DNA of 64,000 bases from Clavibacter sepedonicus. Lineage in GTDB: Bacteria > Actinomycetota > Actinomycetes > Actinomycetales > Microbacteriaceae. The notes below the pieces were generated by a model. That model was given only the letters and a program-made list of their open reading frames with translations. It did no database searches and was not told where the DNA came from. The position numbers were made by a program, and so were the translations under genes. The stretch lies in assembly GCF_000069225.1 (NCBI RefSeq), contig NC_010407.1:930001-994000 (forward strand), read 5' to 3'. This document shows, piece by piece, positions 13,738-58,546 of this stretch; the stretch's first letter is position 1; the number at the start of each line of letters is the position of its first letter.

Positions 13738-14343
13738 TCAGGCCAGGCGGGTCTCGCTCGACATGCTCGAGCGGAGGCCGCCGGTGATCTGGATGACGAC
13801 CGGCACCTCGGTGCCGAGCACCGCGTCGAGCCGGCTCACGGCCTCGTCGACCGTGCGGCGGACCGCGACGGGTGAGACGCCGCGACGGGCGACCGCGGTG
13901 ACCCGCAGCGTGGTGCTGCGCGCCACCTCGAACGCCGTGACGTCGACGGAGACGATCGCGGAGTCGTCGCGGAGGGCGTCCCCGAGCAGCTGCTCGGCGA
14001 CCTTCGCGTCGATGACGACGGATCCGCCCGTGGGGGTGGACGCGTCGCGACCGCCCTCGAGCCGGACGAGCGTGCCGGTGCGGCCGTGCCCCTGGCGGAG
14101 CGCGAACCAGGCGAGGACCACGATGAGGACGAGCGCCACGAGGGCGACGACCCAGAGGATCCACTGCTGCCCGCCGGAGAGCGCGTCGGCGACGGGCTGC
14201 TTCGCGTCGGATGCGGCGCCGGAGACCGTCGACTGGACGTCGGGCAGGAGGCTGCCCGCGCCGAGGGCGACGCCCGCGGCGATGAGGACGAGCCCGACCA
14301 CGATGACGAGGAGGCGGTTCAGCGCCCTGTTCGTGCTGGTCAT
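13738..14343 (-). CDS. AmaP-like Asp23-anchoring membrane protein
   Basis: A 201-residue protein with two transmembrane segments (about residues 10-30 and 60-82) separated by a short loop, and a C-terminal cytoplasmic alpha/beta domain of about 100 residues ending in QITGGLRSSMSS. This is the layout of AmaP, which tethers Asp23 family proteins to the membrane in Gram-positive bacteria. The start overlaps the upstream gene by four bases (ATGA). The gene order with two small Asp23-like proteins and a DUF6286-type protein supports an envelope-stress role. Exact family membership should be confirmed with profile searches. Confidence 0.75.
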   Translation of the reverse strand: MTSTNRALNRLLVIVVGLVLIAAGVALGAGSLLPDVQSTVSGAASDAKQPVADALSGGQQWILWVVALVALVLIVVLAWFALRQGHGRTGTLVRLEGGRDASTPTGGSVVIDAKVAEQLLGDALRDDSAIVSVDVTAFEVARSTTLRVTAVARRGVSPVAVRRTVDEAVSRLDAVLGTEVPVVIQITGGLRSSMSSETRLA

Positions 14344-14918
14344 GAGCCCACCTTCCCGTCCTTCGCGAGCGTCACCTTGGCGGTGAGCTTCGGCGTGTAG
14401 TCGTATCCGTCGAGCTCGGCGCGAACGGCCTGCTCGATGGCGGCCTTGTCCGGCGTGTACCCCGAGGAGGGCGTGAGCCGGACGAGCACCTGGCGCTTCG
14501 AGACCGAGACGTCGACCTGGTCGGGCGACACCTCGCCCGCGTAGCTCGCGGTGAGGGCGACGGATCGGGCGATGACGCGGTCGTCGACGACGGCCGCGGT
14601 GCGTCCCACGCTCCCGCCGCGGCGGCCGCGGCTGCCGGGCGTGATGCCCACGATGACGAGGACGAGCCCGACGACCGCCACGGCGACGCCGACCGCGACG
14701 AGGGCGCCGGCCGGGGCCGATGCGGCGTCGAGGGTGGCCGACGCGAGGTCGGCCGGGGCCAGGAGCAGCGGGGCGGAGCCGATGGCCGCGAGGACCGACT
14801 CGGTGCCGAGCCAGGCGAGCACGAGGATCAGCAGCACGGCGAGTGTGATGGCGATCCCGGCGCGCGACGAGTGCGTCTCCCGCCGCACGAGGCGGCGGTA
14901 GGTGCTGTCGGTGCTCAT
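14340..14918 (-). CDS. DUF6286-type membrane protein of the Asp23 operon
   Basis: A 192-residue protein with two transmembrane segments (about residues 20-42 and 68-92) followed by a cytoplasmic domain with a VSVSKRQVLVRLTPSSG strand pair and an acidic helix. This layout matches proteins commonly found in actinobacterial Asp23 operons, annotated as DUF6286. Its start and stop each overlap the neighbours by four bases, so it is translated in step with them. The likely role is a membrane partner of Asp23 proteins; there is no enzymatic motif. Confidence 0.72.
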   Translation of the reverse strand: MSTDSTYRRLVRRETHSSRAGIAITLAVLLILVLAWLGTESVLAAIGSAPLLLAPADLASATLDAASAPAGALVAVGVAVAVVGLVLVIVGITPGSRGRRGGSVGRTAAVVDDRVIARSVALTASYAGEVSPDQVDVSVSKRQVLVRLTPSSGYTPDKAAIEQAVRAELDGYDYTPKLTAKVTLAKDGKVGS

Positions 14919-15289
14919 GAGACCCTCCTGCGTTCCTGGATGCGCGCGCCCGTGATCCGCAGGTCGACCCGGCCCACGGTGGACCCCGTGAGGCCGAGCA
15001 CGCGGTCGCGGACCTCGGTCTGCGCGCGGATGAGGCGCTCCACCAGCGTCCCCTCGCGGACCGGGCGGTCCGAGAGGGCGGGGACGCGGATGGGGGTGCG
15101 CGCCTCGACGGTGAGCTTGCCGCCGGCGTCCGTCAGCGTCACGGAGACGTCGGTCGCGGGCACCTCGAGGGCGTCCGCGGTGACGGCCGAGACGACGCGG
15201 CGCACGGCGCGCGACGTGATCGTGGTGCGGCCGCGGGTCGCCTGCGTCGCGGTGCCGGGCGTCCCGGGGGCCGCGATCGCGGCGCTCAC
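14915..15289 (-). CDS. Asp23-like protein
   Basis: A 124-residue soluble protein. After a low-complexity N-terminus come TITSRAVRRVVSAVTADAL, then VSVTLTDAGGKLTVEART and a helix RLIRAQTEVRDRVLGLTG with a VGRVDLRITGAR strand. This helix-strand-strand-helix-strand arrangement is that of the Asp23 domain. In Gram-positive bacteria Asp23 proteins form a membrane-associated network under the envelope. Four-base overlaps on both sides place it in the five-gene minus-strand operon from 15812 to 13738. Confidence 0.75.
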   Translation of the reverse strand: MSAAIAAPGTPGTATQATRGRTTITSRAVRRVVSAVTADALEVPATDVSVTLTDAGGKLTVEARTPIRVPALSDRPVREGTLVERLIRAQTEVRDRVLGLTGSTVGRVDLRITGARIQERRRVS

Positions 15290-15474
15290 GACGACCGGCG
15301 CCCGCGGAGGGCGTCGGCGAGGCCGCGGACGTCCAGCTTGCCCTCGAGGACGCGGCCGACGCCGAAGCCCGCGGCCATGAAGATCAGGACGAGGAGGAAG
15401 CCGCCGAAGCCGAATGCGAGCCCGGAGAGCGCGAGGACCGCGCCGACGAGGAGGCCCGTGGTCGTGGGGGTCAC
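15286..15474 (-). CDS. Small DUF2273-like membrane protein
   Basis: A 62-residue protein with two adjoining hydrophobic stretches (residues 6-22 and 24-41) and a C-terminal basic amphipathic segment (GKLDVRGLADALRGRR). The length, the two-helix hairpin and the location directly after an Asp23 gene match DUF2273 proteins that anchor Asp23 complexes. The start overlaps the Asp23 gene stop by four bases. Confidence 0.75.
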   Translation of the reverse strand: MTPTTTGLLVGAVLALSGLAFGFGGFLLVLIFMAAGFGVGRVLEGKLDVRGLADALRGRRSS

Positions 15475-15812
15475 TGGACGCGCTTCTCGGCCGCGTCGTC
15501 GTCGGACGACTTGTCAGACGGCAGGTTCACGTCGGTGATCGTGACGTTGACCTCGGTGACCTCCATGCCGACGACCTGGGTCTCGCCGACCTCGACGGAG
15601 ATGCCCTGGCCGCGGTCCTGCTGGCCGATCACGTTGCGGATCGCGCCGACGGCACGGGCCGCGCCGTTGCCGAGGTCGTGGACGCCGGGGACCTGGCGGG
15701 CCGCGATGCCGGCGACCTTCTCCACGACGCCGTCGGCGATGGTGTTCTTGCCGCCGGTGGAGCCGGTGCCGGTGACGCCGGTGGAAGCGGACGTGGGGGT
15801 GATGCTCGACAT
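15471..15812 (-). CDS. Asp23-family protein with internal in-frame deletion
   Basis: A 113-residue protein and the first gene of the envelope-stress operon. It is closely similar to the intact Asp23 protein at 55107-55550 (shared blocks NTIADGVVEKVAGIAARQVP and VHDLGNGAARAVGAIRN) but lacks 32 residues between VEVGE and QVVGM. That missing block is the second strand and amphipathic helix of the fold. The reading frame is kept, so a shortened protein is probably made. ATG 15812 is chosen because GAGAGAG lies upstream and the protein then aligns with its paralogue. Whether the shortened protein still assembles is doubtful. Confidence 0.8.
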   Translation of the reverse strand: MSSITPTSASTGVTGTGSTGGKNTIADGVVEKVAGIAARQVPGVHDLGNGAARAVGAIRNVIGQQDRGQGISVEVGETQVVGMEVTEVNVTITDVNLPSDKSSDDDAAEKRVQ

Positions 15813-16015
15813 GGTGTCTCTCTCGTGGTGTTCGGAAGGTGATGGTGGTGCAGCTGCGTGGCGCGGATCCGAGGGTGCCTCGCGATCCCGCTTCGTCATT
15901 CAGACGCATGGACCGACCGGTTCGGCACGCGGTTCAGGCGACTCCCAGGGAGCGCGCGTGGCGCTTCGCCTGCCGGACACGGATCGGGGCGGGAGCGGAT
16001 ACCGCCCGGCGCCCC
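15813..16015. other. Intergenic region with Asp23-operon promoter
   Basis: 203 bases upstream of the Asp23 operon (minus strand) and downstream of the AraC gene (also minus). It should hold the AraC-gene terminator and the operon promoter. I see no clear sigma-factor boxes. Confidence 0.35.
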
Positions 16016-17197
16016 TCAGCCGCGCAGCGTCGCGCTCGGCAGCTCGCCGAAGCGCTCCGCGTACGAGGCCGCGAACCGGCCGAGGTGGCCGAAGCCCCAC
16101 TGCTCGGCGACGGCGCGCACGGTGGTCGTGGTGGGCGTCGCGTCACGGAGCTCGGCGCGCACGCGGTCGAGCCGGATCCCACGCAGCAACGCGCTCGGGG
16201 TCGTGTCCTCGTAGCGCCGCACGGCGAGCTGGAGCACGCGCGTGCTGATCCCCGCGGCCCGGGCCGCGTCCGCCGGGGTGATCGGCCGGTCGGCGTGGTG
16301 GTGCAGGTACTCGATGGCGGCGCGGACGGCGCTCATGCGCGGCGCGCGCATCTCCGCGCTGAACGGCACGTCGTGCCACGGGAACAGCTGGAGGGTGGCG
16401 CGCGCGACCAGGAGGCCCGCCTGCATCCGCAGCAGCGGGCTCGACGTCGCGTCCTGCAGCACGGGGCTCGCCTCGCCGACGGCGCGCCGCCACGCTGCGG
16501 TCTGCTCGGGCGTCGGCGGGCGGGTGTGGTCGAAGACGAGCGGGCGCGAGCGGCCCTCGTGCAGCTCGGCCGCGGTCTCCTCGAGGAAGGTGGCGTCGAT
16601 GTGCACGAGGTTCTGCACCGAGGGCTCGGAGCGGAAGCTGAAGGAGCGGCCGGAGGGCAGGAGGAAGGGACGGGATCCGCTCGAGCGCACCTCGTGCGAG
16701 CCGAGGTCGACGGCGCCGGATCCCTCGCGCCACCAGGCGACGACGTACTCGGGCAGCACGGGCATCCGGCCCCAGTGCTCGGCGGGGAAGACCGACGAGC
16801 GGAGCGTCACGTTCTCGTCGCCGACGAAGGAGTACCGGTACGAGAAGTCGCCCGGGCCCTTCGCGGCGCGGAAGTCGGTGCCCGGGTACAGGGCGGTGTA
16901 GCGCGCGACGGCCTCGTCGACGTCGGTGCCGGCCATGTGGCCGCGGCGGAGCGCGGGTGCCGGGGCCTCCGCGGCCCAGTCGGCGAGGTCCGCGGTGCGC
17001 TCGTCGGCGCGCGCGCCGCCCTCGTGGGGCGCGATGGTGTCGACGGTCGCGTCGCCGTCGTGCGGGTGGGTGCGGGGGACGGATCGGGTCGTGCCCGGCA
17101 GCATGTCGCCGTCGGCCCGCTCGTCGTCCAGCGCGGGCAGCGCGTGCAGGGGGGTCGCGACGCGGTGGCGCCCGTCGGGCGCGGTTGCGGTGCTCAT
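16016..17197 (-). CDS. AraC-family transcriptional regulator
   Basis: A 393-residue regulator. About 70 disordered N-terminal residues precede an AraC_binding_2-type ligand domain (FSYRYSFVGDENVTLRSS, RPFLLPSGRSFSF). The C-terminal 100 residues carry two helix-turn-helix motifs: ADAARAAGISTRVLQLAVRR and AVAEQWGFGHLGRFAASYAE. ATG 17197 follows GGAGGATCC. The ligand-domain type is common in regulators next to aromatic or alkane genes, but no such genes are adjacent. It is followed by the Asp23 operon and preceded by a ferritin-like protein gene, so its target is unknown. Confidence 0.88.
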   Translation of the reverse strand: MSTATAPDGRHRVATPLHALPALDDERADGDMLPGTTRSVPRTHPHDGDATVDTIAPHEGGARADERTADLADWAAEAPAPALRRGHMAGTDVDEAVARYTALYPGTDFRAAKGPGDFSYRYSFVGDENVTLRSSVFPAEHWGRMPVLPEYVVAWWREGSGAVDLGSHEVRSSGSRPFLLPSGRSFSFRSEPSVQNLVHIDATFLEETAAELHEGRSRPLVFDHTRPPTPEQTAAWRRAVGEASPVLQDATSSPLLRMQAGLLVARATLQLFPWHDVPFSAEMRAPRMSAVRAAIEYLHHHADRPITPADAARAAGISTRVLQLAVRRYEDTTPSALLRGIRLDRVRAELRDATPTTTTVRAVAEQWGFGHLGRFAASYAERFGELPSATLRG

Positions 17198-17358: not shown

Positions 17359-18300
17359 CTAGTTCGCGGCGCTCGTGGTGATGCTGCCGTTGATGCCGGC
17401 CGGGTAGAACCCGCCGCGGTTCACGGCCTTGCTGTTCAGGTACACGATGTTGAGGACCTGGCCGGTGGTGCGGCTGAAGGCGATGCCGTTCGCGTCCGTG
17501 GGCACGAGGTTCGCGCCGCCCGAGACCGTGATCCCCTGGTCGAGGTCGGTGCGCCCGTCGAGCGAGTCGCGCGCGTTCGAGATGGCATTCGCGGGTGCCG
17601 CGAGGCCCCGGGCGAACAGCTGCGAGCGGATGATGCCCGCGTGGTACGCCTCGACCGCCAGGATCCCCGCGGCCGCCTCGAGGTAGGTCTTGTTGGTGAT
17701 GAGGGGCGCGGCGCCCTTGTAGGCCGTGACCCCGACGTCCTCGAAGATGAACGAGGCCAGCAGGAAGTTCTCCTGGTTGGCGAACGCGTCGAACTTCTCG
17801 CCCGCCTTGATGAGGCCGGCGGCCTGGGCCGCGGCCGTGAACGTGGCGTCCAGGTCGATCGCGGGACGCGCGACCTTCGCCGAGCCGAGCGCCGCGCGCA
17901 GGAACTTGACGTGCGCCTTCTCGTCCTGCGCGATCTCGTAGGCGTACTGGCGGATCGCGTAGTCCTTGAACTGGACCGCGCGGCCGCCCGTGACGGCCCC
18001 GAGGGTGCCGACGCCCGTGGTGTCGTTCGGGACGAGGCCGTTGCCGGTCACGGCGCGGAGGTAGAACTCGGCCTCGAGGTACTCGAGGTTGAGGGCGAAG
18101 TTGAGGACGGCGGCGTCCGTGACGGCACCTGCGTCGGCCTCGGCCTGCGCGTCGGCGGCCTGGGCGCCGGTCGCGGGGATGAGGGCCGCGGCGCCGACGC
18201 CGAGACCGGCTACTCCCGCTGCGCTGAAGAAGCGGCGACGGTCGAGGGGCGACTGCGCGCTCCTGTCGATGGCCTGGCTGATGAACTTCCTGTCGAACAT
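17359..18300 (-). CDS. Tat-exported ferritin-like (desiccation-related) protein
   Basis: A 313-residue protein with a Tat signal ([12 protein letters not shown] near residues 19-30, hydrophobic core, AQA cleavage) and a ferritin-like four-helix bundle. Helices carry [19 protein letters not shown] and [20 protein letters not shown], with the Glu and His positions typical of the Ferritin_2 / desiccation-related family, and later [16 protein letters not shown]. No heme or PHB motif is seen. ATG 18300 is preferred because GGAG precedes it and the Tat motif then sits at the usual place. Related proteins accompany desiccation or oxidative stress tolerance; metal binding is likely but unproven. Confidence 0.85.
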
Positions 18301-18477
18301 GGCACGCTCCGAGGAGGTCGGCGGTGCGCATGGCTCGTCCATGGGCATCCGCGGTGCTCACGATCCGCCCGTATCCGGTCGTGCGCAATGCCTGAGGGCA
18401 CGCGTGGTGCTGGGATTCGTCCCCGGGCTACCGGTATGCGGGGCCAGGGCCCGCGTCCGGGGGTGGGGCCGGACGGC

Positions 18478-52778: not shown

Positions 52779-54848
52779 ATGGAATCCGCACGCCCGCCTC
52801 TGGCCCCCCGCACCGCGCATCCGCGCGGACGGATGGCCGCTCTCGCCGCAGCCGCCGCACTCGTGTGCGCGCTCGCGGTGCCCGCCTCATCCGCCACGGC
52901 AGAGCCGACTGTTCCCGCGGACGGATTCGCGGACGGATTCGCGGCCGACGCCGACCGGTACCGCGCGCAGTACCACTTCACGGTCCCCGACCACTGGAAG
53001 AACGACCCCCAGCGGCCGGTCGTGATCGACGGCGTGACGCACTACTACTACCTCTACAACGCCGACTACGACCAGGAGGTCGGCACGTCGTGGCGCCTCG
53101 CGACGACCACCGACGGCGTCGCGTGGGCCGACCAGGGCATCGCGGCCGAGAAGAAGACGAACCCGAACTTCGACCTGTGGTCGGGGTCCGCGGTCGTGGA
53201 TCCCGAGGGCACCGCCGGGTTCGGCCGCGGCGCCGTGGTGATGCTCGTGACGCAGATGGACCACCCGACGCCGCAGCAGATCGTCGACGCGTCGGGCCCG
53301 CAGGCGCAGTTCCTCTGGTACTCCACCGACGGCGGGCGCACCTTCACACCCTCGGGCGAGGAGGCCGTGCTCCCCAACCCGGGCGTTCGCGACTTCCGCG
53401 ACCCGAAGGTGGTGTGGGACGACGAGCGCGGCAGTTGGGTCATGCTGATCGCCGAGGGCGCGACCCTCAGCTTCTCCACGTCGCCCGACCTCCGCTCCTG
53501 GACGCGCGTCTCCACGTTCGCGGCCGACGGCCTCGGGGTGCTGGAGTGCCCGGACCTGTTCCGCATCACGGCCGACGACGGCACCTCGAAGTGGGTGCTC
53601 GGCGCGAGCGCCAACGGGTATGCGACGGGCGAGCCGAACACCTACGCGTACTGGACGGGATCCTTCGACGGCCGCGCCTTCGTGCCCGACCCGGGAACGG
53701 GCCACCGCTGGCTCGACCAGGGCTTCGATTGGTATGGCGCCGTGACGTGGGCGGATCCGACCGCGCAGCACGAGGAGCGCCGCCTGGCCGTCGGGTGGAT
53801 GAACAACTGGTCGTACCCGAAGGCGGGCCCGACCTGGGAGTCCGACGGCTTCACCGGCACCGACTCCATCACGCGCGAGATCCGCCTCGCCCGCGCGGAT
53901 GGCGGCTACCGGCTCCTCTCCCAGCCGATCGCCGCGCTCGCCGGCCACGCCACGAGCGTGCGCGAGCTCGGCCCGGTACGGGTCGATGGCAGCGTCGTGC
54001 TCCCGTACGCGGGCACGGCGTACCAGCTGGAGACCGAGATCGCGTGGGATCGGCTCGACAACGTCGGCCTGCAGCTGCGGCGCTCCGCCGACGGATCCCG
54101 GCACGCCGACGTGGGCGTATTCCGCGACACCCTGTACGCGAACCGCGGCGGGACCGGCAACCCGGATCCGACGGGGAACAAGCTCGAGAGCCGGAGCCCG
54201 TTCGATGCGTCCGCGAAGGAGGTGAAGCTGCGGATCCTCGTGGACCGCACCACGGTCGAGGTCTTCGTCGACTACGGCGAGGTCGTGCACTCGAGCCAGG
54301 TGTTCGCGGAGCCGGCCGATGCGGGCATCGCCCTGTTCACGCAGGGCGGCGCGGCGACCTTCTCGAACCTGCGCATCACCGAGTTCGCGGATCTCGCGCA
54401 GCGGCCGGCGCACGTGCTGGCCGACTTCGAGGGCACCACCGCGGGCGTGGGCTGGACCGGGACGGGGGATCTGGTCGGGCTCGCGCCGAACGGCTCGCCG
54501 CTGGTCGGTCGGGTGGGCCGTCAGGCGCTCGACACGTACGTGCCCGGCCGGGGAGACGCGGCGACGGGCACGCTCACGTCGCCGCCGTTCACCATCGACC
54601 GCGACGCCATCCACCTGCTCATTGCGGGTGGGGATCACGGGCTCGGCGCGGAGCCGGCCACGAGCGTGAACCTGCTCGTGGACGGCGAGCCGGTGCGTAC
54701 GGCTACGGGCGACGACTCGGCGAAGCTACGTCCGGTCGCATGGGACGTGTCCGATCTCGCGGGGCGGACCGCGCGGATCCAGGTGCTCGACGACGCGACC
54801 GGAGCGTGGGGCCACCTCATGGTGGATCAGGTGATGCTCGCCGACTGA
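52779..54848 (+). CDS. Secreted GH32 levanase / exo-inulinase
   Basis: A 689-residue exported enzyme that releases fructose from fructans. The signal peptide covers about residues 1-42. The GH32 propeller has the nucleophile in HWKNDPQRP (Asp76), RDP (207-209) and the acid/base in ECPDLF (Glu256). The GH32 C-terminal beta-sandwich follows to about residue 540, and an additional domain of about 145 residues (from VLADFEGTT on) has the character of a carbohydrate-binding beta-sandwich. No wall anchor is seen. It supplies fructose or short fructans to the importer upstream. Confidence 0.92.
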   Translation: MESARPPLAPRTAHPRGRMAALAAAAALVCALAVPASSATAEPTVPADGFADGFAADADRYRAQYHFTVPDHWKNDPQRPVVIDGVTHYYYLYNADYDQEVGTSWRLATTTDGVAWADQGIAAEKKTNPNFDLWSGSAVVDPEGTAGFGRGAVVMLVTQMDHPTPQQIVDASGPQAQFLWYSTDGGRTFTPSGEEAVLPNPGVRDFRDPKVVWDDERGSWVMLIAEGATLSFSTSPDLRSWTRVSTFAADGLGVLECPDLFRITADDGTSKWVLGASANGYATGEPNTYAYWTGSFDGRAFVPDPGTGHRWLDQGFDWYGAVTWADPTAQHEERRLAVGWMNNWSYPKAGPTWESDGFTGTDSITREIRLARADGGYRLLSQPIAALAGHATSVRELGPVRVDGSVVLPYAGTAYQLETEIAWDRLDNVGLQLRRSADGSRHADVGVFRDTLYANRGGTGNPDPTGNKLESRSPFDASAKEVKLRILVDRTTVEVFVDYGEVVHSSQVFAEPADAGIALFTQGGAATFSNLRITEFADLAQRPAHVLADFEGTTAGVGWTGTGDLVGLAPNGSPLVGRVGRQALDTYVPGRGDAATGTLTSPPFTIDRDAIHLLIAGGDHGLGAEPATSVNLLVDGEPVRTATGDDSAKLRPVAWDVSDLAGRTARIQVLDDATGAWGHLMVDQVMLAD

Positions 54849-55106
54849 GCGCCCGGCCCCGCCCGGTCCTGCCCGGCCTGCCCGGCCTGCCCGGCCCGGC
54901 TTGCTCGGCCGGGCCCCGTCTGGCCGCTCAGCGCACGCGGAGGTCGCGGGGGTGGCCGTCCAGCGAAGGGCGGCCGCTCCTGCCTGAGCGGAGGCTGAGG
55001 GTCGAGGACGAGCGGGGCTACCACGCCGTCTCCTTGGTGTGCCGGACATGATCCGGCATCGCGATCCGCATCGGGCTCGCGTCACCTCATCTCACAGGAG
55101 CACCAC
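54849..55106. other. Intergenic region with a perfect palindrome
   Basis: 258 bases between the levanase and the Asp23 gene. Besides the terminator it holds TGCCGGA-CATGA-TCCGGCA (55037-55055), a perfect 7-bp inverted repeat 52 bases before the Asp23 start, either an operator or a small hairpin. Confidence 0.4.
54871..54915 (+). terminator. Tandem 9-bp repeats and hairpin after the levanase gene
   Basis: Three units of GCCCGGCCT (54871-54897, the last with one change) run into a hairpin with 8-bp arms (54893-54900 and 54908-54915). It lies 22 bases after the stop and probably ends the fructan operon. Confidence 0.55.
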
Positions 55107-55550
55107 ATGACCGACGTCACCCCCGCCACCGCATCCAGCCGCGCCGCCGCCAAGCACACGCCCGCCGACTCCGCCTCGGGCAAGAACACCATCGCCGACG
55201 GCGTCGTGGAGAAGGTCGCCGGCATCGCGGCCCGCCAGGTCCCCGGCGTCCACGACCTCGGCAACGGCGCGGCCCGTGCCGTCGGCGCGATCCGCAACGT
55301 CATCGGCCAGCAGGACCGCGGCCAGGGCATCTCCGTCGAGGTCGGCGAGAAGCAGGTCGCCGCCGACATCGTCGTCGTCGCCGAGTACCCCGTCGCGCTG
55401 CAGGACCTCGCCGACCGGATCCGCGAGGCCGTCACCGACGCCATCTCGCAGGTCGTCGGCATGGACGTCACCGAGGTCAACGTCACCGTCTCCGACGTGC
55501 ACATCCCCTCGGACGACAAGGACGACGACTCGCAGAGCCGCGTCCAGTAG
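55107..55550 (+). CDS. Asp23-family envelope stress protein (intact)
   Basis: A 147-residue Asp23 protein: NTIADGVVEKVAGIAARQVP helix, ISVEVGEKQVAADIVVVAEY strands, LQDLADRIREAVTDAISQVV helix and a VTEVNVTVSDVHI strand. The N- and C-termini are disordered. Asp23 proteins form a membrane-associated layer in Gram-positive bacteria under alkaline or envelope stress. Compared with its paralogue at 15471-15812 it has the full core. ATG 55107 follows CAGGAGC. Two hairpin terminators follow. Confidence 0.88.
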   Translation: MTDVTPATASSRAAAKHTPADSASGKNTIADGVVEKVAGIAARQVPGVHDLGNGAARAVGAIRNVIGQQDRGQGISVEVGEKQVAADIVVVAEYPVALQDLADRIREAVTDAISQVVGMDVTEVNVTVSDVHIPSDDKDDDSQSRVQ

Positions 55551-55561
55551 CACCGCCCGCT

Positions 55562-55624
55562 GACGGGACCGGGCGCGCCCCGGTCCCGTCGCCGCGCGCG
55601 GGCCGGTCCCGAGACGGCCCGCGC
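55562..55624 (+). terminator. Two hairpin terminators after the Asp23 gene
   Basis: A perfect 12-bp stem (55562-55573 with 55579-55590) is followed by a 10-bp stem (55596-55605 with 55615-55624). They separate the Asp23 gene from the aquaporin gene. Confidence 0.72.
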
Positions 55625-55773
55625 CACCCGCATCGCACAGCTCACTGCACCAGGCATCGAGCACCGAGCACGCAGCACCTTCCGGAGCATCCCCCGCACC
55701 GACGGGAGCGCCACCCGGCTCCCCCACCTGCACCCACGCACGATCCCCGCTCCAGACAAGAGGACACGAACCG

Positions 55774-56592
55774 ATGAGCAAGTCGACCACCGCCACGACG
55801 GCACCCCGCGACACCCCGGCCCAGGGCCGTGGTCAGAAGGCGGCATCCGCCGGCGACCGCCCATCCACCGCCGCCCGCTGGGGCGCCGAGGCGTTCGGCA
55901 CGTTCCTCCTCGTCTTCGGCGGCGTCGGCACCGCGCTCTACGCGTCCGCTTTCCCCGACGACGGCAACGCCACGGGCGTCGGCTTCCTCGGCGTCGCGCT
56001 CGCGTTCGGCCTCACCGTCATGGCGGGCATCGCCGCGGTCGGCGGCATCTCCGGCGGCCACTTCAACCCCGCCGTCAGCGTCGGACTCGCGTTCGCGGGC
56101 CGCATCGGCTGGCGCGAGGTGCCCGGCTACGTGGTCGCGCAGCTCGTCGGCGGGATCCTTGCCTCCAGCGCCCTCGCGCTCATCGCCGCGGACGGCCCCA
56201 CCGGCTACCTCGCCTCGAAGCAGGACGCGGGCTTCGCGTCGAACGGCTTCGGCGACGCGTCGCCCGGCGGCTTCGGCCTCGGCGCGGTGCTGCTCGTCGA
56301 GGTCATCCTTACGGCCGTCTTCGTGACCGTGATCCTCGCCGTCACCGCCCAGAAGGCCTACGCGGCCGTCGCGCCGATCGTCATCGGGCTGACGCTCACC
56401 CTGATCCACCTCATCAGCATCCCGGTCAGCAACACGTCCGTGAACCCGGCCCGCTCCATCGCCGCCGCGATCTACGGCGGGCCCGAGGCGCTCGGGCAGG
56501 TGTGGGCGTTCATCGTCGCGCCGCTCGTGGGTGCCGCGATCGCCGGGCTCGCGCACCGCGCGCTGACCCGTGCCGCCGACGTCCCCGCCTGA
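55774..56592 (+). CDS. aqpZ: Aquaporin (MIP family)
   Basis: A 272-residue water channel with six membrane helices and the two NPA half-helices: GGHFNPAVSVG near residue 103 and NTSVNPARSIA near residue 220. The sequence between them and the narrow filter residues resemble AqpZ more than glycerol channels, which usually carry NPARD in the second motif. The first 35 residues are disordered. It lies between two Asp23-type genes, which fits an osmotic-stress role. Confidence 0.9.
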   Translation: MSKSTTATTAPRDTPAQGRGQKAASAGDRPSTAARWGAEAFGTFLLVFGGVGTALYASAFPDDGNATGVGFLGVALAFGLTVMAGIAAVGGISGGHFNPAVSVGLAFAGRIGWREVPGYVVAQLVGGILASSALALIAADGPTGYLASKQDAGFASNGFGDASPGGFGLGAVLLVEVILTAVFVTVILAVTAQKAYAAVAPIVIGLTLTLIHLISIPVSNTSVNPARSIAAAIYGGPEALGQVWAFIVAPLVGAAIAGLAHRALTRAADVPA

Positions 56593-56682
56593 TCCACCCC
56601 ACCCCGCCGCTGCGCCCTCACCGGGCGCGGCGGCCGGGTGCATGAACCCATCCCGCATCCGCACCACCGAAGGAGCACCGCC

Positions 56683-57855
56683 GTGAACGACGCCGCACCC
56701 GCCATCCGTCCCATCGACCTGACCGGCATCGACGCCGCGCACCCGGAGGGGGAGACGGTCGCGCATCGCGTGGGCGTCGCCGCGGCCGAGACCGCCGCGG
56801 GCGTCACGGGTGTGCACCACCTCGGCGGATCCGCCGCGCGGGCGCTCGACGCGGCGTCGCGGGCGATCCGCGGCACGAGCACCGGGCCGGGCGTCACGGT
56901 CTCCGAGGAGGCCGGCGGCACCGTGATCGACATCGACCTCGTGGTCGAGTACCCGACGCCCGTGCAGGACGTGGTCGACGAGACGCGCGAGCAGGTCGCC
57001 CGCGCGGCCCGGCAGATCGCGCCGGGCGCCGTCCGCGTGAACATCCGCGTGACCGACGTGCACGGTCCGTTCGACGACGTGCAGTCGCCCGCGGGTGCCG
57101 CGCTCGAGAAGGCGAAGGACGCCGGATCCGACGCGCTCGAGAAGGCGAAGGACGCCGGATCCGACGCGCTCGAGAAGGCGAAGGACGCCGGATCCGACGC
57201 GCTCGAGAAGGCGAAGGACGCCGGATCCGACGCGCTCGAGAAGGCGAAGGACGCCGGATCCGACGCGCTCGAGAAGGCGAAGGACGCCGGATCCGACGCG
57301 CTCGAGAAGGCGAAGGACGCCGGATCCGACGCGCTCGAGAAGGCCAAGGCGGCCGGGGCCGATGGGCTCGACAAGGCGAAGGCCGCGGGGTCCGAGGGGC
57401 TCGAGAAGGCCAAGGCCGCGGGAGCTGAAGCGGCCGATCGCGCCCGCGAGGCCGGCGACCGGATCCAGGACGCGTCCGCCGACGCCGCCACCCGCGCGCA
57501 TGGCGCCGGATCGCGCGCCGCGGACACGGCGAAGGAGATCGGCTCCGAGGTCGCCGACCGGGCGAAGGCCGCGGGCGCCGTGCTCGCCGACTCCGCGAAG
57601 GCGGACGTCGAGGAGACCCGCGAGGCGGCAGAGGAGCGCGACGAGCGCGCCGCCGCCGACGCGGCCGACTTCGACACCTACGCGGAGCCCGCCGGATCCG
57701 CGCCCGAGGTCACCGTGATCGTCGACGGGCACGGCGAGCAGCCGACCCGCATCGAGGTCGACGGCCCCGCCACCGTGGAGGTGCAGGGCGACCGCGTCGA
57801 GGTCGACGGATCCGACGCATCCCGCACCGAGGCCGAGGACGCCGACCGCTCCTAA
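56683..57855 (+). CDS. Asp23-like domain fused to LEA-like 11-residue repeats
   Basis: A 390-residue protein. Residues 1-135 form an Asp23-like domain (TVAHRVGVAAAETAAGVTGV, IDIDLVVEYPTPVQDVVDET, VRVNIRVTDVHG). Residues 140-249 contain ten 11-residue units: seven identical ALEKAKDAGSD, then ALEKAKAAGAD, GLDKAKAAGSE and GLEKAKAAGAE. Weaker repeats continue to about residue 315, and an acidic domain with VTVIVDGHGEQPTRIEVDG ends the protein. The 11-residue amphipathic period is that of group 3 LEA proteins, which protect membranes and proteins during drying. GTG 56683 follows AAGGAG. The function is inferred. Confidence 0.82.
   Translation: MNDAAPAIRPIDLTGIDAAHPEGETVAHRVGVAAAETAAGVTGVHHLGGSAARALDAASRAIRGTSTGPGVTVSEEAGGTVIDIDLVVEYPTPVQDVVDETREQVARAARQIAPGAVRVNIRVTDVHGPFDDVQSPAGAALEKAKDAGSDALEKAKDAGSDALEKAKDAGSDALEKAKDAGSDALEKAKDAGSDALEKAKDAGSDALEKAKDAGSDALEKAKAAGADGLDKAKAAGSEGLEKAKAAGAEAADRAREAGDRIQDASADAATRAHGAGSRAADTAKEIGSEVADRAKAAGAVLADSAKADVEETREAAEERDERAAADAADFDTYAEPAGSAPEVTVIVDGHGEQPTRIEVDGPATVEVQGDRVEVDGSDASRTEAEDADRS
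57100..57429 (+). repeat. 33-bp coding tandem repeat (7 perfect and 3 degenerate units)
   Basis: Seven identical 33-bp units occupy 57100-57330, followed by three degenerate units to 57429. Each perfect unit contains GGATCC. Identity at every base, including silent positions, indicates recent expansion, so copy number is likely to differ between strains. Confidence 0.95.
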
Positions 57856-57883
57856 CGGTCGACGGGGCGTCCGTCCCGCGCCA

Positions 57884-58455
57884 CTATCGTCCGACGCCTG
57901 CGAGCGAGCCGACGGTCTTGCCGGCGGGATCCCCGATGATGCAGTCGACGGTGCGGTCGCCCGTGCTCCAGCTGTCGCTCGTCGGCTTGTACCCCTGGTA
58001 GTCGTAGATCGAGTCCTGGTAGTCGAAGCCGACGAAGGGCCCGAACGCCGCGCCGCACAGGTCGTCGGCCTGCGCGTCCACCGCGTCGTCGCCGGGGAAG
58101 TCGTCGCCCGTCAGCGTGGGGGCCGCGTACACCTCGAAGTCGTGCGGGTCGGAGCACGGCACGGTGCTCACGTCGCCCACTGGTGCGAGTGCGGGGAGCC
58201 GTCGTCGCTCGCGGGGTGCGCATCAGCCGTGTCCTGCTCGTCCACGGCGGCCGATGCCGCGTCGTCGAGGCAGTCGCCCTGGCGCAGCGCGAAGACGTCG
58301 GTCGTGCCGCCGGCAGTGATGGATCCGTCGTCGCCGCGCGTCTCGGCGTACGGCACGAGGTCCGCCCGCTGCTGCAGCGAGCACCCGCTGAGCGCGGCGA
58401 CGAAGAGGACGGCAGCGAACGCGGTGGGCAGGATGCGGCGGGCGGCGACGGCCAT
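57884..58455 (-). pseudogene. Septum-formation-type lipoprotein, frameshifted
   Basis: From ATG 58455 a lipoprotein signal (lipobox ALSGC) is followed by TTDVFALRQGDCLDD, then the frame ends at 58168 in an unrelated stop. The other frame carries VSTVPCSDPHDFEVYAAPTL and continues to 57884 with the second conserved cysteine in RTVDCIIGDP. The two halves join if one G is added near 58178-58180 (HQ-VGDVSTV). The Cys-x4-His pattern and length fit the septum-formation domain often found with DUF4190. About 189 residues if intact. It is followed on the plus strand by the convergent LEA-like protein gene. Confidence 0.75.
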
Positions 58456-58546
58456 GGGGGTCCTCGGGTTCGGGGAGCGGATCGGGCTCACCGTAGCGGG
58501 GCCCCTCGCCTGCGCGCGCGAGTTGCCCGGTGGCGGATCCGCGGCG

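What the first reader, a model, noticed from the sequence alone, without database searches (positions are those of the whole stretch)
56683..57855. Fusion of an Asp23-like domain with LEA-like 11-residue repeats
Asp23 proteins form membrane-associated layers, and LEA group 3 repeats stabilise membranes and proteins during drying. One protein with both, beside an aquaporin and another Asp23 gene, suggests an undescribed desiccation or osmotic-stress scaffold on the inner membrane face.
Basis: partly seen in the sequence, partly recalled or inferred. Interest (0 to 1): 0.75.

Follow-up and report, generated by a model that had tools for sequence, protein, structure and literature searches.

The report
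Asp23 envelope protein with amphipathic-helix tail
A bacterial stress protein that is expected to coat the inside of the cell membrane carries a long tail built from 11-residue units of the kind found in drought-protection (LEA) proteins, and the same combination recurs in related soil and plant bacteria, so it may be a membrane-tethered drying shield that can now be tested.

Summary
The gene at 56683-57855 (GTG start, 390 aa) joins an Asp23 domain (39.6 bits, cut-off 28) to 11-residue repeats with the spacing and charge layout of a class A amphipathic helix, modelled as one long helix, plus an acidic C-terminus. It is not a one-off: of 23 Microbacteriaceae genomes found with this Asp23 subtype, 18 have such a tail and 5 do not. 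Tails that differ greatly between genera keep the 11/3 periodicity, charge layout and group-3 LEA pattern. In 19 of the 20 genomes outside Clavibacter the gene stands at the end of an AmaP-type Asp23 operon, usually behind an AraC-type regulator; an aquaporin sits just before it in 3 of those 20 and in 13 of 16 Clavibacter genomes. In Clavibacter the anchor genes lie apart (window 13738-15899). Two Asp23 genes rise during drying in Curtobacterium aetherium (PMC12029717). My best reading: an Asp23 layer carrying conditional, membrane-lying helices. My searches found no paper on the fusion.

The parts
56683..57855 (+). Asp23 + 11-mer-tail gene, 390 aa, GTG start
   Evidence: most homologues shown start at the same residue
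56779..57060 (+). Asp23 domain (PF03780), residues 33-126
   Evidence: 39.6 bits, cut-off 28; modelled with block pLDDT 81-93 at residues 31-50 and 71-130, 54-58 at 51-70
57088..57663 (+). Predicted long amphipathic helix, residues 136-327, with 11-residue periodicity
57099..57423 (+). 33-bp tandem array, 9.8 copies; seven identical copies at 57099-57329
57664..57852 (+). Acidic C-terminus with a valine-rich strand-like segment; low-confidence in the model
55774..56592 (+). Aquaporin Z-type gene, 90 bp upstream
55107..55550 (+). Canonical Asp23 gene (Asp23_1), 147 aa
   Evidence: 86.4 bits
13738..14343 (-). AmaP-like membrane protein, 201 aa
   Evidence: NCBIfam anchor_AmaP E 2.1e-6 over nearly the whole model, 27.6 bits, below the cut-off of 55; no Pfam family; homology to the gene in relatives
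14340..14918 (-). DUF6286-like membrane protein
   Evidence: 29.7 bits, cut-off 35; homology
14915..15289 (-). Short Asp23-operon protein (Asp23s), no Pfam match
15286..15474 (-). DUF2273-like small membrane protein
   Evidence: homology to the relatives' gene; Pfam only 18.7 bits, cut-off 25.4, and the genome scan with the family found nothing at E <= 0.001
15471..15899 (-). Asp23 gene of the anchor operon; matches only profile positions 3-60 of 108 in this genome
16022..16954 (-). AraC-type regulator region, conserved upstream of the operon in most relatives
   Evidence: tblastn with the Rathayibacter gene, which matches HTH_AraC and HTH_18

Best explanation
The protein is one subunit of an Asp23 envelope layer. 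Shown here: an Asp23 domain followed by about 190 residues whose 11/3 periodicity and charge order are those of a class A amphipathic helix, kept across genera while the sequence changes, and encoded at the end of an AmaP-type Asp23 operon in relatives. Inferred: the Asp23 domain joins the Asp23/AmaP layer on the inner face of the membrane; the tail is disordered or loosely helical when the cell is wet and lies on the inner leaflet as a helix when water is lost or the membrane is disturbed, because its apolar face (Ala, Gly, Leu) is weak and its net charge negative; tail length tunes how much membrane each subunit covers. In this way the layer would keep the membrane intact during drying or osmotic shock, with water flow adjusted by the neighbouring aquaporin where present.
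For: Asp23 domain: (23 of 23 orthologues scanned). Best period 3.58-3.70 in 37 of 39 tail rows; its power reached by no more than 5% of shuffles in 32 of 39 (three rows duplicate others). K/R nearer the apolar face than D/E in 20 of 20 tails picked from the 39, permutation <= 0.02 in 17 of 20; differences +0.22 to +0.82, against means of +0.12 and +0.14 (sd 0.50, 0.46) for amphipathic windows in 336 other open frames of these loci. Group-3 LEA pattern z >= 3 in 36 of 39 rows. Purifying selection on the non-repeat helix in 12 of 12 Clavibacter pairs tested, omega 0.16-0.46. Operon: all four anchor genes beside it in 19 of 20 non-Clavibacter genomes; AmaP-like gene in 18 of 18 genomes of the genus; three AmaP-like proteins match the AmaP model at E 2.1e-6 to 2e-10. 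Two Asp23/Gls24 genes and CsbD genes rise in drying Curtobacterium aetherium; two Curtobacterium genomes have three full Asp23 genes, two of them in this operon. S. aureus Asp23 binds the membrane through AmaP and forms filaments (passages).
Against: No experiment on this protein. LEA_4 does not match it. Tail net charge -28, acidic on a probably acidic membrane. Five of 23 genomes keep this Asp23 gene without such a tail (G108, G120, G175, G192, G153), Clavibacter G200 has almost no helix left, and 2 of 18 genomes of the genus lack the gene, so the tail is not essential. The period alone is not significant in G034 and G007 either. The charge order is not unique: among the 8 baseline frames with enough windows, two that are not tailed Asp23 genes reach +0.58 and +0.40 at the looser threshold, none of 6 reaches +0.40 at the stricter one. 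The AmaP matches are below the curated cut-off of 55 bits (27.6-40.7). The window's copy is not next to the anchor genes. No sigma-B-like promoter upstream of any of 28 starts looked at. The helix model is middling (mean pLDDT 65, pTM 0.34), and AlphaFold readily makes long helices from Ala-rich sequence (recalled).
Confidence: 0.48

Rival explanations
1. The tail is a soluble LEA-like shield that protects cytosolic or membrane-near proteins from aggregation when dry; the Asp23 part only places or oligomerises it.
For: The group-3 LEA pattern is met; 11-mers alone raise desiccation survival of E. coli in PMC8670023 (passages); the apolar face is weak (mean hydrophobicity about -0.1).
Against: The class A charge order and the apolipoprotein-type profile matches point to lipid surfaces, though neither excludes protein shielding.
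Confidence: 0.2
2. The tail is a spacer or acidic brush that sets distance or crowding in the Asp23 layer, without lipid contact.
For: Length varies widely (12 to 350 residues among the rows); repeat number differs between near-identical proteins (or an assembly effect); the C-terminus evolves fast (omega 0.44-0.77).
Against: A spacer need not keep 11/3 periodicity or charge order; both are kept in tails that differ greatly between genera.
Confidence: 0.18
3. The helices pair with each other (11-residue coiled coil) and cross-link Asp23 units into a wider scaffold.
For: Coiled coil has been suggested for the LEA 11-mer; weak profile matches to designed helical bundles (best E 0.00069).
Against: The apolar face is nearly all Ala/Gly with one Leu per unit, poor for a stable core (sequence).
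Confidence: 0.09
4. The protein coats intracellular lipid or polymer granules, like perilipins or phasins, rather than the cell membrane.
For: Weak Perilipin, ApoLp-III and Apolipoprotein matches.
Against: Its operon partners in relatives are membrane proteins of the AmaP type.
Confidence: 0.05

Closest known systems
Staphylococcus aureus Asp23-AmaP system (PMC6954212, passages read)
   Same: Asp23 domain and AmaP-type anchor genes; expected place on the inner membrane face.
   Different: No such tail is mentioned in the passages read; here one of several Asp23 proteins carries a long amphipathic tail, and an AraC-type regulator usually precedes the operon.
Group-3 LEA proteins (LEA_4), including bacterial DosH (PMC10295645) and Arabidopsis LEA_4 (PMC7215670), passages read
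   Same: 11-residue units, pattern match 0.78 in the window's best 44 residues and up to 0.89 in relatives, no Cys, few aromatics.
   Different: Fused to an Asp23 domain; no LEA_4 profile match to this protein; net acidic.
Exchangeable apolipoproteins (PF01442), apolipophorin-III, perilipin; alpha-synuclein (recalled)
   Same: 11-residue class A amphipathic repeats; Apolipoprotein profile E <= 0.1 in 12 of 23 orthologues, best 1.5e-12.
   Different: In a scan of 10 genomes no match passes the curated cut-off of 90 bits, and the profile also rings in 7 of 14 control genomes; weaker apolar face; bacterial and joined to Asp23.
PRC-barrel proteins with a similar tail (P0073, P0074)
   Same: Tail of the same type.
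   Different: Folded part is PF05239, with an apparent signal sequence (by eye), so probably another compartment.

Membership tests
Asp23 (PF03780) | Profile match above Pfam's gathering score | tested here: met
   39.6 bits against 28, residues 33-126
Asp23-AmaP envelope system | AmaP-type anchor gene in the same operon | tested here: inconclusive
   Adjacent in 19 of 20 non-Clavibacter genomes; in the window about 41 kb away. The AmaP model matches three of these proteins (window, Rathayibacter, Curtobacterium) at E 2.1e-6, 2e-10, 1.2e-8, but below its cut-off of 55 bits
Asp23-AmaP envelope system | Membrane localisation and filament formation | not testable with these tools
   needs microscopy and purified protein
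Group-3 LEA (LEA_4, PF02987) | Profile match above the cut-off | tested here: not met
   No match in the window's genome at E <= 10; 1 of 23 orthologues at E 0.047
Group-3 LEA (LEA_4, PF02987) | 11-mer pattern of hydrophobic, acidic/amide and basic positions (as given in PMC10295645) | tested here: met
   0.78 of specified positions, shuffles 0.51; single-unit permutation P = 0.033; position 8 (basic) is Ala and position 9 is Gly in the window unit
Group-3 LEA (LEA_4, PF02987) | Net charge near zero (Arabidopsis LEA_4, PMC7215670) | tested here: not met
   Net -28 over a 259-residue tail, which includes the acidic C-terminus
Group-3 LEA (LEA_4, PF02987) | Gains helix on drying and protects membranes or proteins | not testable with these tools
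   needs circular dichroism and drying assays
Apolipoprotein A1/A4/E (PF01442) | Profile match above the cut-off of 90 bits | tested here: not met
   No match over the cut-off in any of 10 genomes scanned; the window's gene is not among the matches
Class A amphipathic helix | Basic residues at the polar/apolar border, acidic residues in the middle of the polar face (definition recalled) | tested here: met
   Mean cosine -0.18 for K/R, -0.86 for D/E; permutation 0 of 500, with the caveat that repeat copies are not independent

The most novel reading that the evidence does not exclude
A tethered LEA system: bacteria fix a conditional, drought-type amphipathic helix to a protein layer under the membrane, so that on drying the helices lie down on the inner leaflet and hold it together; relatives tune the dose by adding or losing 11-residue units, and some have placed an aquaporin in the same unit.
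Probability: 0.28. Interest if true: 0.82.

Novelty: new variant of a known kind. Interest (0 to 1): 0.58.

Why it matters
What Asp23 proteins do is unsettled (the S. aureus paper PMC6954212 says the molecular function is still unclear). A subtype whose tail has a readable physical signature gives a direct, testable hint: the layer may act on the lipid bilayer itself. It would also show LEA-type protection fixed to one cell surface rather than free in the cytosol, in a family with many soil and plant-surface bacteria that dry out.

Tried and rejected
Looked for a sigma-B-like promoter (GTTT...GGGTA) upstream of 28 starts in 25 sources: none. Rfam on 54800-58200: nothing at the gathering threshold. 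Solved relatives by sequence: only weak hits to designed helical bundles, apolipophorin-III and an engineered SNARE for the profile (6 in all), and one at E 0.87 for the canonical Asp23. Fold search of the model: nothing at E <= 0.001; best matches are the MamM C-terminal domain at 3.3e-3. NCBIfam Ag473 lipoprotein match to the repeats (25.3 bits, cut-off 100): rejected. Simple repeat artefact: rejected because the non-repeat helix is under purifying selection and other genera keep the pattern with other units. An assembly effect on the repeat number cannot be excluded: P0002 is the same protein with exactly six units fewer, its longest contig 46 kb, which could be a collapsed short-read assembly or a true copy-number difference. 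The first baseline for charge order had few windows and gave about -0.1; it was enlarged, where one frame left in (L049, G050's own tailed Asp23) had escaped my filter. Dropped rows: G031 (masked run) from all tail statistics; tails under 40 aa (G108, G120, G192); one search used 20 of the 39 tails; one search left out the short or cut orthologues G034, G200 and G201. Searches used only the first 160-170 residues of each tail. Hits weaker than about 1e-15 were not all inspected for the subtype.

Full report
What is there. The window lies in a 3.4 Mb genome (G000, contig C2, 930001-994000). The genus is Clavibacter by inference: the closest named homologues are Clavibacter, and G203, same genus by the tool's label, carries the same protein as C. 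michiganensis CFBP8019. The species was not determined. The gene 56683-57855 encodes 390 residues. Pfam finds Asp23 at residues 33-126 with 39.6 bits against a cut-off of 28. A 33-bp array follows at 57099-57423, its first seven copies identical in DNA, coding DALEKAKDAGS units. In the AlphaFold2 model the Asp23 part has ten-residue blocks at pLDDT 81-93 (residues 31-50 and 71-130) with a dip to 54-58 at 51-70, then helices at 136-224 and 226-327 with block pLDDT 50-83; mean pLDDT is 65 and pTM 0.34, and the C-terminus is not modelled with confidence.

Is the tail more than low-complexity sequence? Laid on an 11/3 helix, the unit puts Ala, Ala, Ala, Gly and Leu on one face, the two Lys at its two borders, and Asp/Glu in the middle of the other face (direct from the sequence). 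Across 39 tails of at least 40 aa (three are duplicates of others), the best hydrophobic period lies between 3.58 and 3.70 residues in 37 of 39, and its power is reached by no more than 5% of 1000 shuffles in 32 of 39; the seven others are Clavibacter G034 and G200, Rathayibacter 2856 and its duplicate G171, and G007, G153 and G175. In 20 of those tails chosen to span genera, K/R sit closer to the apolar face than D/E in 20 of 20, and permuting the charges does as well in at most 2% of cases in 17 of 20; the three others are Clavibacter G210, G011 and G050. The differences are +0.22 to +0.82. Weakly hydrophobic amphipathic windows of 336 other open frames from 33 sources, taken mechanically, give means of +0.12 (773 windows, sd 0.50) and +0.14 (470 windows, sd 0.46), and about 30% of such windows exceed +0.4. 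Of 8 frames with 15 or more such windows at the looser threshold, 3 reach +0.40: one is G050's own tailed Asp23 that my filter missed, two are other proteins (+0.58, +0.40); at the stricter threshold 0 of 6 do. So the layout is unusual, not unique. Repeat copies within one protein are not independent, so single-protein values overstate the case; the weight lies in the agreement between genera whose units differ, such as DAVKQAAETTS, ALDSAREKGGA, ATDRVKDVASD and KAGELKDKAGD.

LEA or not? Using the group-3 LEA 11-mer rule quoted in PMC10295645, the best 44 residues of the window tail fit 0.78 of specified positions against 0.51 in shuffles; z is at least 3 in 36 of 39 rows, not in G200, G153 and G175. 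One window unit against permutations of itself gives P = 0.033. Against LEA membership: Pfam LEA_4 finds nothing in the genome even at E 10 and matches 1 of 23 orthologues at 0.047, while Apolipoprotein matches 12 of 23 (best 1.5e-12), YtxH 4, apolipophorin-III 3 and perilipin 1. In a genome scan Apolipoprotein passes its cut-off in 0 of 10 genomes and also rings in 7 of 14 control genomes, so it is a statement about helix type, not kinship. The tail's net charge is -28; Arabidopsis LEA_4 proteins are near zero (PMC7215670). So it works like this class of helix, and is not filed as a LEA_4 or apolipoprotein family member.

Selection. Between the window gene and 12 Clavibacter orthologues, dN/dS is 0.06-0.16 in the Asp23 part, 0.16-0.46 in the non-repeat helix (residues 247-327) and 0.44-0.77 in the C-terminus; G034, G200 and G201, short or cut, were left out. 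The helix is therefore maintained. The C-terminus holds a [VIF]x[VIF]x[VIF] segment in 14 of the 15 Clavibacter tails other than the CFBP8019 duplicate (not G212), in the Rathayibacter rows, and in G007, G110, G167 and G185, but not in the five Curtobacterium rows nor in G004, G011, G035, G050, G150, G153, G165 and G175; in G007 47% of shuffles have one too. Its role is unexplained.

Distribution. In 199 Microbacteriaceae genomes, 73 have an Asp23 match at E <= 1e-5; by score and inspection 23 hold this subtype. Of these 23, 18 have the tail (G031's tail is partly masked and judged by eye; G105's is the same as that of Curtobacterium JUb65) and 5 do not: G108, G120, G192, G175 (63 residues, no pattern) and G153 (93 residues, weak). 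In 297 genomes of the order the best match outside this genome is 60.0 bits, in a frame of 187 residues. Close relatives were thus not seen outside the family in that draw, but subtype genes inside the family score as low as 59.9 bits (G165), so divergent tailed members elsewhere are not excluded. In the genus, 16 of 18 genomes have the gene (G166 and G199 lack it; G201's runs off a contig).

Operon. In 19 of 20 genomes outside Clavibacter, the gene stands behind Asp23_1, DUF2273, a short Asp23-operon protein, DUF6286 and an AmaP-like membrane protein; the exception is G192. A further small membrane protein follows in 18 of 20. An aquaporin lies between AmaP and this gene in 3 of 20 (G004, G007, G150, two genera). 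NCBIfam's AmaP model matches the AmaP-like proteins of the window, Rathayibacter and Curtobacterium at E 2.1e-6, 2e-10 and 1.2e-8 over most of its length, though below its cut-off of 55 bits. A gene matching HTH_AraC (the Rathayibacter one) lies upstream in the same direction in 16 of the 19 operon regions, within about 450 bp in 15 and 2 kb off in L048; it was not found in those of G007, G011 and G116. It also stands before the anchor operon in the window and in L077, L082 and L083. In Clavibacter the set is split: AmaP-like, DUF6286-like, Asp23s, DUF2273-like and an Asp23 gene on the minus strand at window 13738-15899, and Asp23_1, aquaporin and the tailed Asp23 at 55107-57855. The window's DUF2273-like and DUF6286-like proteins are below their Pfam cut-offs and DUF2273 is not found by a genome scan. 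An AmaP-like gene is in 18 of 18 genomes of the genus. The aquaporin stands between the Asp23 pair in 13 of the 16 that have the tailed gene, not in G034, G207 and G211. P0071 of Subtercola boreus starts with what looks like a piece of aquaporin sequence read in frame, which fits the same neighbourhood.

Function. S. aureus Asp23 is held at the inner membrane face by AmaP, forms filaments, and its molecular function is unclear (PMC6954212, passages). In Curtobacterium aetherium L6-1, one Asp23/Gls24 gene is up at all four drying time points, and another, with two CsbD genes, at or below 50% water (PMC12029717, passages and one section). Two Curtobacterium genomes here have three full-length Asp23 genes plus one partial match, two of the three in this operon; if L6-1 is alike, at least one induced gene is from this operon. 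That is inference: its genome and the supplement were not seen. In Streptomyces venezuelae an Asp23/Gls24 gene goes down on ethanol shock (PMC9769785, passages), so Asp23 genes are not uniformly induced by membrane stress. 11-mer LEA motifs alone raise desiccation survival of E. coli (PMC8670023, passages).

Verdict. I give 0.48 to a membrane-lying conditional helix in an Asp23 layer, with desiccation or osmotic protection as its likely use. Literature searches with Asp23 plus AmaP, late embryogenesis abundant, Gls24 and Actinobacteria, desiccation, amphipathic, apolipoprotein and Clavibacter showed no description of the fusion among the titles and abstracts listed; several lists were cut (15 of 18, 15 of 77, 8 of 70), and most subscription journals and preprints are not covered.

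Noticed in passing
window 15471-15899 (-): The Asp23 gene of the anchor operon reads as a shorter protein than its relatives: it matches only profile positions 3-60 of 108, where G109's copy matches 3-107. Described only.
   Followed up: partly
window 16022-16954 (-) and 16 of 19 operon regions outside Clavibacter: An AraC-type regulator sits upstream of the Asp23 operon in the same direction across genera.
   Followed up: partly
window 17359-18345 (-): Ferritin-like gene (PF13668, 151.6 bits) near the regulator; related plant proteins are called desiccation-related (recalled).
   Followed up: no
window 57099-57423; P0002: Seven identical 33-bp copies here; P0002 is the same protein with exactly six units fewer: copy-number change or assembly collapse.
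   Followed up: partly
P0073, P0074: PRC-barrel proteins with an apparent signal sequence and the same type of 11-residue tail.
   Followed up: no
window 57664-57852: Valine-rich strand-like segment at the C-terminus, present in several genera but absent in the Curtobacterium rows; role unknown.
   Followed up: partly
window 55554-55598: 20-nt inverted repeat (85% complementary) with 5 nt between the arms right after the canonical Asp23 gene, perhaps a terminator or attenuator.
   Followed up: no
G000:C2:1207691-1208110 (-), outside the window: Another apolipoprotein-type helical stretch, E 1.8e-15, 58 bits (cut-off 90), in a 336-residue open frame.
   Followed up: no
window 57884-58491 (-): A Septum_form-type gene (PF13845) appears spread over two overlapping frames. 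Described only.
   Followed up: no
P0071 (Subtercola boreus): Its first residues look like a remnant of aquaporin sequence read in frame with the Asp23 protein.
   Followed up: no
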